DNA of 8,029 nucleotides from JBFJWU01 sp041623475 [NCBI: bacterium]. Lineage in GTDB: Bacteria > J088. The stretch's first letter is position 1, and each line of letters starts with the position of its first letter. The stretch lies in contig JBFJWU010000141.1 of assembly GCA_041623475.1 (NCBI GenBank), positions 1-8,029 of the forward strand. Reading direction: 5' to 3'. This document shows positions 1 to 7,388 of this stretch, one piece after another. A program made the translations under genes and the position numbers. The notes under the pieces are model-generated. The model had not been told where the DNA came from and did not search any database. It was given only the letters and a program-made list of their open reading frames with translations.

Positions 1-2417
1 CCGCGGCCGAAGACGAGCTGCTGGAAGAGCCGGTCGAGGAAGCCCTGGCCGAAGACGAACTGCTTGAGGAACCGGTCGAGGAAGCCCTGGCTGAAGACGA
101 ACTGCTTGAGGAACCGGTCGAGGAAGCCCTGGCCGAAGACGAACTGCTTGAGGAACCGGTCGAGGAAGCCCTGGCCGAAGACGAATTACCGTTGCTTGAA
201 GATGAATCCGATGTCGTTGCGGCACCTCCGGTTGATGATGTCCTGGTAGAAGAGGAGTCCGACCTGGTCGCCGAGGAACCGGTTGACGAATTTGCGGATG
301 AGCCAATTGATGAATTTGACGAACTGCCGGCAGATGACGAACTCTTGGTTGAGGAACCTGTCAGTGCGGCACCGGCGGCCGACTTTTCAGACGAGCCAAT
401 CGTCGAAGACGAATTGCCGCAGGAAGAAGAACTGATCGAAGAAGACGAGTTCATCGACGAGCCGATTATTGAGGAAAGCGACGAGGATCGCCTGGCAGCA
501 GAAACACTGGATGGTATGGACAGCGCGGACATCGATGCCGCTGCCGCTGCGCCAGTCGACGACTATTATGTCGAGGAACCCGTCGAAGAAGTGCCTGTGG
601 ATGAACCCGTCGTACAGGCCAGTATGCTGGTCGACATTAACTGGGATACCAGCAGCGACAGGACCACAATCCGAATTGATGGCAACGGACCCATCGGTGA
701 CTACAACGCCTTTAAGCTGGAAGATCCGTCTCGGATCGTGCTCGATGTCTGGAACGTCGAATCGGCAATCGCCGGTGAGGAGTTCGCCATCAATTCAAAC
801 CAGGTCAGTTCCGTTCGCGTGGGCGATTACCCGGAAAAAGTACGGATCGTCTTCGATGTGCCGGGCGTATCGCCGCTGCCATTCGAAGCCAGCAAGGATG
901 GATCGGTTCTGGAAATCCAGATTTCGGGAATGGCCCAGACCAGGGAATCCGAGCAGATCGCTGAACCTGTCGCCGAGCCAGAGCCGATTATCGAGGTGGC
1001 GACAGTCGCTGAGCCTTTGGCAGAGCCAGAGCCAGAGCCGGCACCGGCGCCCAAGGAAATCGAAGAATCGCTTCCCGCAACCCCCAAGAAACCTGCGGTC
1101 GGTGCTGCCGAATTCGAAATGCGAGTTCGCGAAACCAAAAAGACCGAAGTCAAGGAAGAGCAAAAACAATACGCTGGCCGAAAGATCAGCCTTGATTTCA
1201 AAGACGCGGATATTGACAGCGTTTTGCGCCTGATCGCTGAAATCAGCAACCTGAACATTATTACCGACCAGGAAGTTGGCGGGACGATCAGCATTCGCCT
1301 GGTCAATGTTCCCTGGGACCAGGCCCTGGATGTCATCCTCAATGCAAAGCAGCTGGGGATTCGCAAGCTGGGCAATATCGTCCGAATCGCGCCGGTTGCC
1401 AAGTTGTCGGCAGAAGACGAGCAACGCCTGAAGACAATGGAAGGGCAGGAACAGCTGCTGCCGTTGTTTATCCGGATCGTTCCGGTTAACTATGCCAGCG
1501 CTGGCCAGCTCAAGTCCCGGGTCGAGTCATTGCTGTCCAAGCGCGGCAAGGTTGAAGTTGACAGCCGGACGAATGTCTTGATTATCAAGGACATCGAACG
1601 CAACATCGAAGACGCTGTTGCCCTGTTGCGGAGTCTGGATACGCCCACACCCCAGGTCTTGATCGAAGCAAAGATTGTCGAAGCCAATACGACTTTTACA
1701 CGGGACCTGGGTATCCAGTGGGGTTACGGACAGCAGTTCGCGCCATCATTTGGCAACGCGATCCTGCCGGGCAACGTTGGTGTCGCCGGCTCGTCGGCGG
1801 GCAACGTCGGCGTTCTGGACGGAGCGCCAAACTTTGCAGTTGACCTGCCTGCCGCCGCCGGTACAGGCGCTGGTGGTGCGTTGAGTTTCCTGTTTGGCAG
1901 CCTGGATAACAGCCTGGTCCTTGACCTGCGCCTGTCAGCAATGGAAGCAGCTGGAGAGGGCCGAATCATGTCAAGTCCGCGAATTACAACGCTGGACAAC
2001 GAGCAGGCAAAAATCCAGCAGGGTATTTCGATTCCGTTCCAGACAGTCAGTGCCCAGGGGACGCAGACGCAGTTTGTCGATGCGGCCCTGGAACTGGAGG
2101 TTACACCGCATATCACGCCGGACCGCTCGATCCTTCTCGACTTCAAGATCTCGAAGAACGCGCCGGACCAGACATTTACGGCTGGCACCGGTGTACCATC
2201 GATCTCCAAGAAAGAAGCGGAAAGTCGAATGCTGATCGCGGACGGCGAGACAGCCGTAGTTGGCGGGATATACACGATTGACCAGGGTACGTCCCGGTCG
2301 ATGGTGCCGTGGATCAGCAAGATTCCGGTTCTGGGCTGGTTCTTCAAGAAGAAATCGTTCCGGGACACCAAGACGGAGTTGCTGTTGTTTGTGACACCGC
2401 GAATCGTACAGCAGTAA
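1..2417 (+). CDS. pilQ: Type IV pilus secretin PilQ (5' end outside window)
   Basis: This is the outer-membrane secretin through which type IV pili are extruded. The frame (codons from base 3, 804 residues visible) is open from the left edge, so the start and signal peptide lie upstream; the first internal ATG, at 192, is not the start. Seen in order: an acidic repeat-built segment (3-620) with only one basic residue in about 219; an AMIN domain (about 621-926, with PSRIVLDVWNVE), which binds peptidoglycan in the family; a Pro/Glu linker (about 963-1091); the N0/STN domain (about 1170-1397, GRKISLDFKDADIDSVL and NVPWDQALDVIL); an N1 KH-like domain (about 1461-1706); a Gly/Ala-rich stretch (about 1722-1884); and the secretin pore (about 1905-2414), with SRMLIADGETAVVGGIY and the closing VPWISKIPVLGWFFKKKSF then ELLLFVTPRIV. 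These C-terminal motifs favour PilQ over GspD. The acidic extension is the odd part. pilMNOP would be expected upstream. Confidence 0.95.
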   Translation, partial: AAEDELLEEPVEEALAEDELLEEPVEEALAEDELLEEPVEEALAEDELLEEPVEEALAEDELPLLEDESDVVAAPPVDDVLVEEESDLVAEEPVDEFADEPIDEFDELPADDELLVEEPVSAAPAADFSDEPIVEDELPQEEELIEEDEFIDEPIIEESDEDRLAAETLDGMDSADIDAAAAAPVDDYYVEEPVEEVPVDEPVVQASMLVDINWDTSSDRTTIRIDGNGPIGDYNAFKLEDPSRIVLDVWNVESAIAGEEFAINSNQVSSVRVGDYPEKVRIVFDVPGVSPLPFEASKDGSVLEIQISGMAQTRESEQIAEPVAEPEPIIEVATVAEPLAEPEPEPAPAPKEIEESLPATPKKPAVGAAEFEMRVRETKKTEVKEEQKQYAGRKISLDFKDADIDSVLRLIAEISNLNIITDQEVGGTISIRLVNVPWDQALDVILNAKQLGIRKLGNIVRIAPVAKLSAEDEQRLKTMEGQEQLLPLFIRIVPVNYASAGQLKSRVESLLSKRGKVEVDSRTNVLIIKDIERNIEDAVALLRSLDTPTPQVLIEAKIVEANTTFTRDLGIQWGYGQQFAPSFGNAILPGNVGVAGSSAGNVGVLDGAPNFAVDLPAAAGTGAGGALSFLFGSLDNSLVLDLRLSAMEAAGEGRIMSSPRITTLDNEQAKIQQGISIPFQTVSAQGTQTQFVDAALELEVTPHITPDRSILLDFKISKNAPDQTFTAGTGVPSISKKEAESRMLIADGETAVVGGIYTIDQGTSRSMVPWISKIPVLGWFFKKKSFRDTKTELLLFVTPRIVQQ
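9..176 (+). repeat. Four 42-bp tandem repeats encoding a 14-residue acidic unit in PilQ
   Basis: Copies lie at 9-50, 51-92, 93-134 and 135-176, with a partial fifth unit (EDEL) beginning at 177. Each encodes EDELLEEPVEEALA, half of whose residues are acidic. Copies 3 and 4 are identical at DNA level, copy 2 differs from them by one base (T at 92), and copy 1 differs from copy 3 by four bases. All these differences are in third codon positions and are synonymous. The unit is a multiple of three, so gain or loss of copies keeps the frame. The two residues before copy 1 (AA) fit the end of another unit, so the array may continue to the left. Looser relatives of the unit (VEEPV, EDELP, DEPI) recur down to about base 610. 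Confidence 0.95.
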
Positions 2418-2429: not shown

Positions 2430-3179
2430 ATGAAAAACAATCTTAAAAAACTGCTGGCCGCAACGGCCGTGATCGTAATGGTAGCTGGCTGCGGTCGGCA
2501 GGAGTTCCTGAACGATTTCGAGGATGGCTACAAAGTCTATTTCGACCAGTTGGTTTACACAGATATTCGCGGTGCTGAAATCCAGGCATCGGGTGCAAGC
2601 ACCATCGACCTGTTCAGTTGCCAGGGCGTCGGAGTTGGCGAGGGAGTCTTTAGCCGTGTTGTCGTTGAGGGTCTGGTGAATGTGGTCGTTGAAACACTAC
2701 CCAGTCAGAGTTTCCCCAGCGGTGTCCAGTTGTGGATCACTGACTATACACTTTCCTATACGCCGCTCCCGAGTCCGCGGGACAATCTGCCAACGCTGGT
2801 CGCCCTTGACGATGTGATCGTGTCGTTTCCCGCAAGCCGAAGGAGTGGGCAGGTTTTTAACTTGAGTGAGTCCGGAACGCTGGAACAGGAGTTTCGCGTC
2901 GAGGTCTTTTCCGAGAAGAAACAATTGGAACTCGCAGACAACTTCATCGCCGCGTACGGAAGTGGCACCAGCCAGTTTGACAATGAAACAGGAATCTGGG
3001 CATACCCCGATTACCTGTTGACGTATACATTTTTCTTTCAGGATTCATACGGAAACCGCGGCAGCCACCAGGTTGAGTACAAATTAACCGTCGGCGAATA
3101 TGCCGATGACGACGAGACCTGCGATGGCGACCAGTACCGGGACGCAGCTGGTAGCGTCGACACGGTTTTTGGCAATTAG
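2430..3179 (+). CDS. Predicted outer-membrane lipoprotein of unknown function next to pilQ
   Basis: The 249-residue product starts with a basic n-region (MKNNLKK), a hydrophobic core (about residues 8-18) and a lipobox VAGC, so Cys21 should be lipidated. Gly at +2 is not the Asp inner-membrane retention signal, which favours the outer membrane. The mature part alternates hydrophobic and polar residues as beta-rich proteins do. Apart from Cys21 the only cysteines are Cys64 and Cys231, a possible disulfide. The tail from about residue 225 is Asp/Glu-rich. The arrangement (WITDYTLSYTPL in the middle, LLTYTFFFQDSYGN near the end) recalls beta-sandwich lipoproteins I associate with Desulfuromonadota, but this is from memory and no family is assigned. 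The ATG has a strong Shine-Dalgarno site and is 12 bases after pilQ. It could be a pilotin or other PilQ-associated factor, but only its position suggests that; there is no visible TPR, so it is not a PilF/PilW-type pilotin. Confidence 0.88.
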   Translation: MKNNLKKLLAATAVIVMVAGCGRQEFLNDFEDGYKVYFDQLVYTDIRGAEIQASGASTIDLFSCQGVGVGEGVFSRVVVEGLVNVVVETLPSQSFPSGVQLWITDYTLSYTPLPSPRDNLPTLVALDDVIVSFPASRRSGQVFNLSESGTLEQEFRVEVFSEKKQLELADNFIAAYGSGTSQFDNETGIWAYPDYLLTYTFFFQDSYGNRGSHQVEYKLTVGEYADDDETCDGDQYRDAAGSVDTVFGN

Positions 3180-3185
3180 ATCAGA

Positions 3186-3626
3186 TTGCCTCAAATACTG
3201 ATCATCAATGGCCCCAACCTTAACCTGTTGGGTGCCCGGGAGCCGGAAACGTACGGCTCAACAACGCTGGCGGAGATCGAGGACGGTCTCCGCCAACGCT
3301 TTTCCGGTCGCTGTGAAATGGAATTTTTCCAGTCTAACCACGAAGGCGAGTTGATTGACCGCGTCCAGTCCGTCCTTGGTAACGACGACGTAATCGGTTT
3401 TGTTATGAATCCCGGCGGGTTTACGCACACCAGTGTGGCGCTCCGCGATGCAGTTGCAGCCGTCGACAAACCGTTCATCGAGGTGCATCTAAGTAATGTC
3501 TTCGCCCGGGAAGAATTCCGACACGTGTCGTATTTTTCTGATCTGGCCGCCGGGGTGATTTCCGGCCTCGGGCCTGCCGGTTACGGCGCGGCAGTTGACG
3601 TTCTGCTGGAGCGCGCCAGCGCCTGA
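3186..3626 (+). CDS. aroQ: Type II 3-dehydroquinate dehydratase
   Basis: Catalyses dehydration of 3-dehydroquinate to 3-dehydroshikimate, the third step of the shikimate pathway, in the cytoplasm. The product (146 residues) has the usual length and complete signatures: [21 protein letters not shown] (Asn12, Arg18, Tyr23), [21 protein letters not shown] (Asn75, His81) and [18 protein letters not shown] (His101, Arg108, Arg112). Family knowledge makes Tyr23 the base and His101 the acid. The start is TTG: the lipoprotein stop TAG at 3177 is in the same frame, ATC and AGA follow, and the next codon is this TTG, so no upstream start exists and the conserved N-terminus begins at residue 4. No good Shine-Dalgarno site is visible, so translation may depend on ribosomes leaving the lipoprotein gene 6 bases upstream. 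Confidence 0.97.
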
Positions 3627-3674
3627 GGCGGATCCGATCAATTTAGGCCTGGATCTTTGCCAACTTTCATGGGC

Positions 3675-3679
3675 AGGTG
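3675..3679 (+). promoter_or_regulatory. Ribosome binding site that favours the ATG at 3687 for pepP
   Basis: AGGTG lies 7 bases before ATG 3687. The in-frame alternatives, TTG 3657, ATG 3669 and ATG 3696, lack a comparable purine-rich site at suitable distance. Confidence 0.5.
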
Positions 3680-3686
3680 TACCCTG

Positions 3687-4787
3687 ATGGCTCCCATGAA
3701 CTTTGACTCAAGAATTAGCAGGGTGCGAGAACTGCTGGACGATGCCGGTATCGCGATGATACTGATTGCGTCAGCAGAGAATTGCCGCTATTTAACCGGA
3801 TTCACCGGTTCGAACGGGCAGGTTCTGGTTTCGCGGGACACCGTTAGATTGCTGACTGACGGCCGCTATACGGCCCAGGCCAGCCAACAGGCAACCGCTG
3901 ATGATATTGTTATCTACACATCCCTGGCGAAAGAACTTCCCCGACTGGTTTCGGAATATGCTGGCAGCGCGATCGGATTCGAAGCAGCGGCGTTTACGGT
4001 TTCGGAGTGGGGACGGTTGGCCACTGAAACCCACGGTACAGATTGGCTCCCGGTTGGAGATGCCCTGGAAAAGCTACGGGTATGCAAGGACCGGCACGAA
4101 CTGGACTGCATAGCCAGGGCAGCTGCAATCGCCGAGCAGGCATTCCGGGACATTGAACCCGTGATCCAGGCAGGCAACAGCGAACGCGCAGTGGCCATGG
4201 AACTGGAATGGAAAATCCGACAGGCCGGCAGCGTGGCTGTGCCCTTTGATTTCATTGTCGCGTCGGGTTCTCGTTCGGCGTTACCGCACGGCGTTGCTAC
4301 GGACGCGGTGATTCAGTCCGGAAAACCGCTAACACTTGATTTCGGTGCCGAGTTCGGCGGCTATTTCAGTGATATGACAATCAGCGGTTCAGTTGGCAGC
4401 TCGGATTCCTGGTTGCAGGAGATCATGGCAGTGCTGCAGGCCGCCCAGAAAGCGGCGATCGATGCCTGCAAACCCGGTGTATCATGTCGGGACGTTGATC
4501 ACAGCGCCCGGAAAATCATAGCTGATGAGGGCTTTGGCGATGCCTTTTCCCACTCGCTTGGTCACGGCGTCGGACTCGCGGTACATGAGGCTCCCCGGCT
4601 GGCAGCAACGTCGGACGATATCCTGGCCGAAGGAATGGTCGTTACCATCGAGCCGGGAATATATGTCCCGGGAACAGGGGGTGCCCGCATCGAGGACATG
4701 GTGGTCATTACCGCTGACGGGTGCGAGTTGCTAACGTCGATTCCAAAGGAACATCGGACCTGGGGCGAACAATCTGATCCTGGCTGA
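3687..4787 (+). CDS. pepP: Xaa-Pro aminopeptidase / M24 metallopeptidase, short form
   Basis: A pita-bread-fold dimetal peptidase that removes N-terminal residues preceding proline. From ATG 3687 it has 366 residues. The N-terminal creatinase-like domain (about residues 1-130) carries RYLTGFTGSNG and LLTDGRYTAQA; the catalytic domain follows. All five metal ligands are present: Asp218, Asp229 (in LDFGAEFGGYFSDM), His293 (SHSLGHGVGL), Glu322 (TIEPGIY) and Glu336 (ARIEDMVV), with His201 and His300 as the usual active-site histidines. The size matches the roughly 350-residue YqhT/PapA group rather than the roughly 440-residue E. coli PepP, and a PepQ (Xaa-Pro dipeptidase) role cannot be excluded. 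Start choice: the frame is open back to TTG 3657, but ATG 3687 has an AGGTG site 7 bases upstream; ATG 3696 is also possible. aroQ next to a short pepP is familiar from Firmicutes and some Desulfuromonadota, where efp often follows; here purM follows. Confidence 0.93.
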   Translation: MAPMNFDSRISRVRELLDDAGIAMILIASAENCRYLTGFTGSNGQVLVSRDTVRLLTDGRYTAQASQQATADDIVIYTSLAKELPRLVSEYAGSAIGFEAAAFTVSEWGRLATETHGTDWLPVGDALEKLRVCKDRHELDCIARAAAIAEQAFRDIEPVIQAGNSERAVAMELEWKIRQAGSVAVPFDFIVASGSRSALPHGVATDAVIQSGKPLTLDFGAEFGGYFSDMTISGSVGSSDSWLQEIMAVLQAAQKAAIDACKPGVSCRDVDHSARKIIADEGFGDAFSHSLGHGVGLAVHEAPRLAATSDDILAEGMVVTIEPGIYVPGTGGARIEDMVVITADGCELLTSIPKEHRTWGEQSDPG

Positions 4788-6536: not shown

Positions 6537-7388
6537 GTGTCCGACCACAAATACGATATCGGGCTTTATGGTGGAGGATGGACAACGGGGCTGATTGCCC
6601 TGGTCCTGGCGGCCAATGGACGCCGCGTCCTTGTTCTCCGGCCTGACGTTGATCCAGAGGGTCTGCCGCGCCCGTTCCCGCAGTTGTCCTGCCAGCCGTG
6701 GCAGGAATTGCTTCGCTATCTGCCGACAGGAGCCGACCGCGAAAGCTGGACATACGCGGGGGGGCGGGTCCACGATGTGTTTTCGCGCCGCGTCATTGCA
6801 AATGCCGACGTTTCCGAAACACTGGAGCCTGGACCCGGGCTGTTTTCCGCCGGAGTACCAGATACAGCGTGGGCCTGGGCCGAGCCGGTCCGGGGATATC
6901 GCGAATTCCTGAGCCAGGTGTGGGAACAGGTCGTCGCCGCTGGCGCCACCGTTGTCGCAGCGCCGCCGGGAATCCAACTGCAAGGCGGGATCGTTCGCGC
7001 AACGGTTGTACAACGAGTTGAAACCCAACCGAAAACGTGGCACCTGGTTTTTCCCGGGCAGGGTATGTATTCAGCAGGGCCGCGGTTCCCCGAATACATT
7101 CCGATTTGCGGCACAGAGGGTTCATTACAATGGTGGTCTGATATGTCCCAACGTGCGCTTTGGTCCTGCGGCGCTGCCGACGAGACCAGTATCAGGTGGT
7201 TGCCGGATTTGAAACGTACGGCGATTATTACCCGTGCCGCGGCCTGGGGAGTGGTGTCGGCGCGACGTTGCCGGGTCCACACCGTGCCCCCGGTTGCCGC
7301 CACACCACCTGATGACTGGGCAGAATGGATCTGGTCTGTAATCGCACAATGCGGCGGCAAAGATGCACGTTTGTCGTTGGCAAAATAG
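6537..7388 (+). CDS. Unrecognised small protein with Rossmann-type dinucleotide-binding N-terminus
   Basis: I do not recognise a named family. Residues 6-37 look like a beta-alpha-beta FAD/NAD-binding unit: YDIGLYGGGWTTG, a helix rich in Ala/Leu, then RRVLVLRPD. The position at the end of the second strand that normally carries an acidic residue contacting the ribose is Arg35. The rest is rich in Trp (for example W102, W104, W179, W180) and I see no second FAD signature, no membrane segment and no catalytic motif. At 283 residues it is shorter than most flavin oxidoreductases. The start is GTG: the purN stop TAG (6531) is in the same frame, one GCG follows, then this GTG, and the Rossmann strand begins 5 residues in. 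With only 3 bases after purN it is probably translated by coupling. It may be a diverged oxidoreductase domain or a non-catalytic binding protein. The frame is intact, and a promoter for the next gene overlaps its end. Confidence 0.78.
   Translation: MSDHKYDIGLYGGGWTTGLIALVLAANGRRVLVLRPDVDPEGLPRPFPQLSCQPWQELLRYLPTGADRESWTYAGGRVHDVFSRRVIANADVSETLEPGPGLFSAGVPDTAWAWAEPVRGYREFLSQVWEQVVAAGATVVAAPPGIQLQGGIVRATVVQRVETQPKTWHLVFPGQGMYSAGPRFPEYIPICGTEGSLQWWSDMSQRALWSCGAADETSIRWLPDLKRTAIITRAAAWGVVSARRCRVHTVPPVAATPPDDWAEWIWSVIAQCGGKDARLSLAK

What the first reader, a model, noticed from the sequence alone, without database searches (positions are those of the whole stretch)
9..176. Near-identical 42-bp tandem repeats inside pilQ with only synonymous differences
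Four in-frame copies encode exactly the same 14 residues, yet copy 1 differs from the others at four third positions and copy 2 at one. The near identity points to recent slippage or unequal exchange, while the strictly synonymous changes hint at selection on the peptide. Copy number could vary between strains and tune the length of a PilQ spacer without breaking the frame.
Basis: partly seen in the sequence, partly recalled or inferred. Interest (0 to 1): 0.62.

Follow-up and report, generated by a model that had tools for sequence, protein, structure and literature searches.

The report
Acidic repeat array in PilQ linker
The sequence really holds four near-identical 42-base repeats inside the gene for the type IV pilus exit channel, in a flexible, strongly acidic linker; other arrays turn up in relatives' channels and a basic one is known from Neisseria, so this is a new variant of a known kind of feature.

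Summary
Five of five synonymous is unlikely by chance (p 0.0008-0.0028); counting only changes that keep residue class, p is 0.05-0.14. The array lies in a linker of at least 205 residues (net charge -88) upstream of an AMIN domain in the PilQ secretin. The window begins 8 bases before copy 1, so total copy number is unknown. No parent genome or close relative is held; strain variation was untestable. In pilQ linkers of relatives, arrays exceed a codon-shuffle control (segments scoring >=60: 12 of 170, window included, against a mean of 0.33), with different units. One relative's pilQ appears split between two contigs both ending in its array. The nearest known counterpart is the variable 'small basic repeat' of neisserial PilQ (PMC3441751, PMC3031610, passages). 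Best reading: a slippage-born minisatellite in a disordered acidic tether under composition-level selection. Tuning between strains stays a hypothesis.

The parts
3..2417 (+). pilQ, type IV pilus secretin, 5' end missing (804 codons present)
   Evidence: ORF open at 5'; Secretin, Secretin_N, AMIN, STN; TIGR02515 above cut-off
5..185 (+). 42-bp in-frame tandem array, 4.3 copies
   Evidence: TRF score 327
9..50 (+). copy 1, EDELLEEPVEEALA, four synonymous differences from copies 3/4
51..92 (+). copy 2, same peptide, one synonymous difference from copies 3/4
93..134 (+). copy 3
135..176 (+). copy 4, identical to copy 3
177..188 (+). partial fifth copy (EDEL, then diverges)
3..617 (+). acidic linker (205 residues present, net charge -88, one basic residue), on the disordered side of the charge-hydropathy boundary
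642..917 (+). AMIN domain downstream of the linker (ORF residues 214-305)
   Evidence: PF11741, E 2.6e-11
918..1175 (+). second linker, Pro/Glu-rich, between AMIN and N0
   Evidence: composition
1176..2414 (+). N0/N1/secretin part

Best explanation
An in-frame minisatellite, made by replication slippage or unequal recombination, sits in the disordered acidic linker of the PilQ secretin upstream of the AMIN domain that precedes N0. Shown: the array, its frame, its place, the strongly acidic linker, and the recurrence of unlike in-frame arrays in PilQ linkers of relatives. Inferred: (a) a first AMIN domain lies upstream, off the window, as an inter-AMIN linker was found in 59 of 81 relatives; (b) the linker is a flexible periplasmic tether between domains held to bind peptidoglycan (recalled) and the outer-membrane ring, where length is loosely constrained, so copies can come and go; (c) purifying selection keeps the acidic/Pro/Leu-Val composition; (d) copy number may differ between strains. 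Any effect on piliation is a hypothesis by analogy with the neisserial repeats.
For: Exact copies and synonymous-only differences; p 0.0008-0.0028. Linker -88 over 205 residues, disordered side of the charge-hydropathy boundary. In the 79 relatives with a recognised AMIN, TRF (score >=50) covers 2.2% of linker bases and 0.11% of folded-domain bases. Of 170 linker segments (window included), 12 score >=60 and 4 score >=100; 60 codon-shuffled sets give means of 0.33 and 0, maxima 2 and 0. L031 has EAPIFEEAPPVE x3.8 (36 bp) between its two AMIN domains, its last copy the most diverged; its sister L030 (89% identical secretin part) has a different acidic unit. In 17 related pairs that I picked by hand from the tree, the AMIN-N0 linker is less alike than the secretin part in 16, and the inter-AMIN linker in 12 of the 13 pairs that have one; L095/L104 is the exception in both.
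Against: No copy-number variation was seen, because no strain-level data are held. In those 13 pairs the inter-AMIN linkers differ by only 0-6 residues in length. Most linkers of relatives are not strongly acidic (median acidic fraction 0.15; 6 of 90 inter-AMIN linkers above 0.25), and 155 of 170 linker segments have no array at score 50. L030 and L088 arrays have 3 synonymous to 4 replacement and 9 to 5 changes. Self-similarity of the rest of the window's linker to the unit is not significant (57 of 1000 shuffles reach it). Structure prediction was unusable (mean pLDDT 35, two-row alignment).
Confidence: 0.68

Rival explanations
1. A functional variable-number repeat that tunes PilQ: strains change copy number to alter the tether's length or charge and hence pilus assembly.
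For: Neisserial PilQ has a variable octapeptide repeat (4-7 copies in N. meningitidis, 2-3 in N. gonorrhoeae; PMC3031610 passage) between its B1 and B2 domains, said to influence the efficiency of pilus formation (PMC3441751 passage). Synonymous-only differences here.
Against: No strain data; replacing 2 gonococcal repeats by 6 left ring symmetry unchanged (PMC3031610); 155 of 170 linker segments have no array at score 50; related pairs have inter-AMIN linkers of nearly equal length.
Confidence: 0.2
2. The copy number is an assembly artefact: the array is real, but copies were collapsed or cut off at the contig end. (Not exclusive of the best explanation.)
For: The window starts 8 bases before copy 1. 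In genome G002 a contig with the start of a PilQ ends in 18-bp AEVQEV repeats (L002) and another with the rest of a PilQ begins with them (L089); contig L030 also ends in an acidic array. Of 5 pilQ ORFs cut at the 5' side (window, L030, L035, L082, L089), 3 are cut in a repeat array.
Against: The longest exact internal repeats are 62 and 51 bases, which reads or k-mers longer than that resolve; copies 1 and 2 carry private variants. Read type and assembler are unknown, and whether the window is a whole contig is not told.
Confidence: 0.3
3. The 14-residue unit is a structural or ligand-binding repeat (for example helical, or cation-binding), selected residue by residue.
For: Peptide identical in four copies despite five base changes.
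Against: A proline in each unit, extreme net charge, disordered side of the charge-hydropathy plot; none of the relatives' TRF arrays has this unit; no Pfam match in the linker.
Confidence: 0.08

Closest known systems
Small basic repeats (SBR, PAKQQAAA) of Neisseria PilQ
   Same: Tandem peptide repeats in the N-terminal linker region of PilQ, next to its beta-domains (AMIN-type, recalled); low complexity (PMC3441751, PMC3031610, passages)
   Different: Neisserial unit is 8 residues and basic, and its copy number is known to vary; here 14 residues, strongly acidic, variation unknown, in an unplaced lineage
L031 (genome G034) PilQ array, EAPIFEEAPPVE x3.8, 36 bp
   Same: Acidic, Pro-containing, in-frame, in the inter-AMIN linker; mostly synonymous differences, an edge copy the most diverged
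   Different: Other unit and period; 2 of 10 changes are replacements
G002 PilQ array, AEVQEV, 18 bp (5.2 copies in L089, 3 at the end of L002)
   Same: In-frame array in a PilQ linker at a contig end
   Different: Lies after an AMIN domain (L002) and before a further AMIN hit (L089); unit less acidic; copies identical

Membership tests
Type IV pilus secretin PilQ | Secretin domain with N0/N1 and PilQ-level profile score | tested here: met
   TIGR02515 443 bits, cut-off 284; Secretin, Secretin_N, STN
Type IV pilus secretin PilQ | AMIN domain(s) N-terminal to N0 | tested here: met
   PF11741 at ORF residues 214-305; a further upstream AMIN would lie outside the window
Type IV pilus secretin PilQ | pilMNOP genes upstream | not testable with these tools
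   window starts inside pilQ; ORFs that look like pilM-pilP by eye lie upstream in relative L001 (no profile run)
Coding minisatellite / VNTR | head-to-tail near-identical units, period a multiple of 3 | tested here: met
Coding minisatellite / VNTR | copy number differs between strains | not testable with these tools
   no own genome; no close relative found
Neisserial PilQ small basic repeat | basic octapeptide unit | tested here: not met
   unit is 14 residues with no basic residue
Neisserial PilQ small basic repeat | lies between the two beta-domains (B1/B2) | tested here: inconclusive
   upstream of one AMIN; the other side is off the window

The most novel reading that the evidence does not exclude
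PilQ linkers are general hot spots of in-frame minisatellites across bacteria, and this lineage carries an acidic, convergent counterpart of the neisserial repeat whose copy number adjusts the pilus channel; [quoted passage not shown]
Probability: 0.25. Interest if true: 0.5.

Novelty: new variant of a known kind. Interest (0 to 1): 0.3.

Why it matters
If copy number varies within populations, a single in-frame locus could change the reach or charge of the tether between cell wall and pilus channel, giving a natural series for testing what PilQ linkers do. More soberly, arrays recur in PilQ linkers of several lineages, which widens a feature described as peculiar to Neisseria, and they seem to break metagenome assemblies inside pilQ, so truncated pilQ genes in such genomes should be read with care.

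Tried and rejected
Close relatives were sought in genome contigs (3 loci, best 53%), viral contigs (none), plasmids (none), and in phylum, class and order samples (searches drew nearly the same genomes); the best identity over the N0-secretin part was 55%. The array DNA itself matched none of 395 genomes, but that search had no positive control. The tree of 81 rows (80 relatives and the window; L041 left out, its PilQ frame being broken) did not place the window with support. Decay of the same unit through the rest of the linker: unproven (57 of 1000 shuffles as good). AlphaFold2 on a two-row alignment: unusable, mean pLDDT 35. Antisense ORF 2-532 (Ser-rich): taken as a by-product of acidic codons, untested. 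Literature: searches for PilQ with small basic repeat (4 papers), AMIN domain/linker/repeat (4), tandem repeat/copy number (9), secretin/acidic/intrinsically disordered/repeat (0), SBR/Neisseria (3). I saw passages of five of the listed papers (PMC3441751, PMC10653833, PMC2884949, PMC3031610, PMC10327513) and only titles and abstract starts of the others; no acidic PilQ repeat appeared in what I saw. PMC10327513 gave nothing on repeats. Tonjum 1998, the primary paper on the neisserial repeat, is not held and is known here only through others.

Full report
Observation. The four copies at 9-50, 51-92, 93-134 and 135-176 are exact as described: each encodes EDELLEEPVEEALA, and the five differences between copies are all synonymous third positions. 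TRF gives 4.3 copies of period 42 at 5-185 with score 327; codon shuffles of the same linker never exceeded 59 in 60 trials. A partial fifth copy follows. The window starts only 8 bases before copy 1, and codon 3-5 already departs from the unit, so the left boundary and the total count are unknown.

Gene and place. The frame is pilQ, cut at its 5' end. The array is in an acidic linker of at least 205 residues with net charge -88 and one basic residue, upstream of an AMIN domain (residues 214-305). Array and linker fall on the disordered side of the charge-hydropathy boundary, as does the second linker; the AMIN and N0-secretin parts fall on the folded side. AlphaFold2 with two sequences gave no usable model.

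Selection. With the window unit, a random base change is synonymous with probability 0.24-0.31 (transition weights 1-4), so five of five has p 0.0008-0.0028. This treats the five as independent. If only changes that keep charge or hydrophobic class are counted, p is 0.05-0.14. Purifying selection on the peptide's character is therefore likely; selection on the exact sequence is not shown.

Relatives. No genome of the window's own organism is held. The genome-contig scan gave three loci, the best 53% identical. In a sample of 297 genomes from the phylum of G003 (the genome of L003, record title: Thermodesulfobacteriota), 172 had a PilQ match at E <= 1e-60; a draw of 395 from the phylum of G034 gave 3 at E <= 1e-142, all known. 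The tree leaves the window unplaced on a long branch. I read 81 pilQ genes (L001 and 80 fetched regions), chosen from the top of the match list, so they are not a random sample. AMIN domains were found in 79 of 81 relatives (not in L041 and L081) by an iterated profile built from the window's own. The 90 inter-AMIN linkers, in 59 proteins, run from 13 to 191 residues (median 58), with median acidic fraction 0.15; 6 exceed 0.25. The window's linker, at 205 or more residues and 0.43 acidic, is longer and more acidic than any of these 90; the 80 AMIN-N0 linkers (window's own included) run from 38 to 290 residues.

Arrays in linkers. In the 79 relatives with a recognised AMIN, TRF at score 50 or more covers 996 of 44,832 linker bases (2.2%, 13 proteins) and 153 of 142,803 folded-domain bases (0.11%, 3 proteins). 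Of 170 linker segments from 80 proteins, the window included, 15, 12, 5 and 4 reach scores 50, 60, 80 and 100; 60 codon-shuffled sets give means of 1.18, 0.33, 0.03 and 0. Of the 15, 14 have periods divisible by three, which is expected in coding DNA; L083, period 23, does not. The arrays of L030 and L089 lie before their first recognised AMIN and are not in that count. Units differ even between sisters: L031 has EAPIFEEAPPVE repeats; L030, with an 89% identical secretin part, has other acidic repeats. So position and, in part, acidic composition recur, the unit does not. Many of the other arrays are not acidic overall: L029 is Pro/Ala-rich, and L088 and L050 mix Lys and Glu. L031's array has 8 synonymous and 2 replacement changes against its consensus; L030 (45-bp unit) has 3 and 4, L088 9 and 5, so strict synonymy is not general. 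In 13 hand-picked related pairs the inter-AMIN linkers differ by 0-6 residues in length and are less alike than the secretin part in 12.

Assembly. In genome G002 one contig ends, after an AMIN domain, in AEVQEV repeats (L002), and another begins with the same repeats followed by the rest of a PilQ (L089). L030's contig also ends in an acidic array. The window starts in the same way. Its longest exact internal repeats are 62 and 51 bases, so the copies seen could be resolved by ordinary reads, but further identical copies could have been lost.

Known kinds. Neisserial PilQ carries 'small basic repeats' between its B1 and B2 domains, called unprecedented within the secretin family and said to influence the efficiency of pilus formation (PMC3441751, passages); a 2007 paper likewise calls meningococcal PilQ unique among secretins for its abundance and this polymorphic region (PMC2884949, passages). 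The octapeptide PAKQQAAA occurs in 4-7 copies in N. meningitidis and 2-3 in N. gonorrhoeae, and raising 2 to 6 did not change ring symmetry (PMC3031610, passages). M. xanthus PilQ has three AMIN domains joined by flexible linkers (PMC10653833, passages). The window's array most likely works as part of such a linker; it is not a member of the neisserial family, having another unit length and opposite charge.

Verdict. A real, in-frame minisatellite in a PilQ linker: a new acidic variant of a known kind. Recent origin and composition-level selection are supported, strain-level variation and tuning are untested, and the copy number at the window's edge is not reliable.

Noticed in passing
L002 5123-6117 and L089 (genome G002): One pilQ gene seemingly split between two contigs, one ending and one beginning in the same 18-bp AEVQEV repeats.
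   Followed up: partly
window 2430-3179: Lipoprotein-like protein (249 aa, VAGC lipobox by eye) right after pilQ, without Pfam or NCBIfam match at E 0.001; a possible pilus accessory protein.
   Followed up: no
window 6537-7388: 283-aa protein with a glycine-rich N-terminus like a dinucleotide-binding fold (by eye) and no Pfam or NCBIfam match, between purN and yajC.
   Followed up: no
window 3186-4787 and L113: aroQ followed by an M24 peptidase gene downstream of pilQ; the same pair lies about 3 kb downstream of pilQ in G002 (L113), the only one of 10 loci compared with an aroQ match.
   Followed up: partly
L041: PilQ frame broken: the reading frame found is only 165 aa and the search reported one TAG inside the match (G025).
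   Followed up: no
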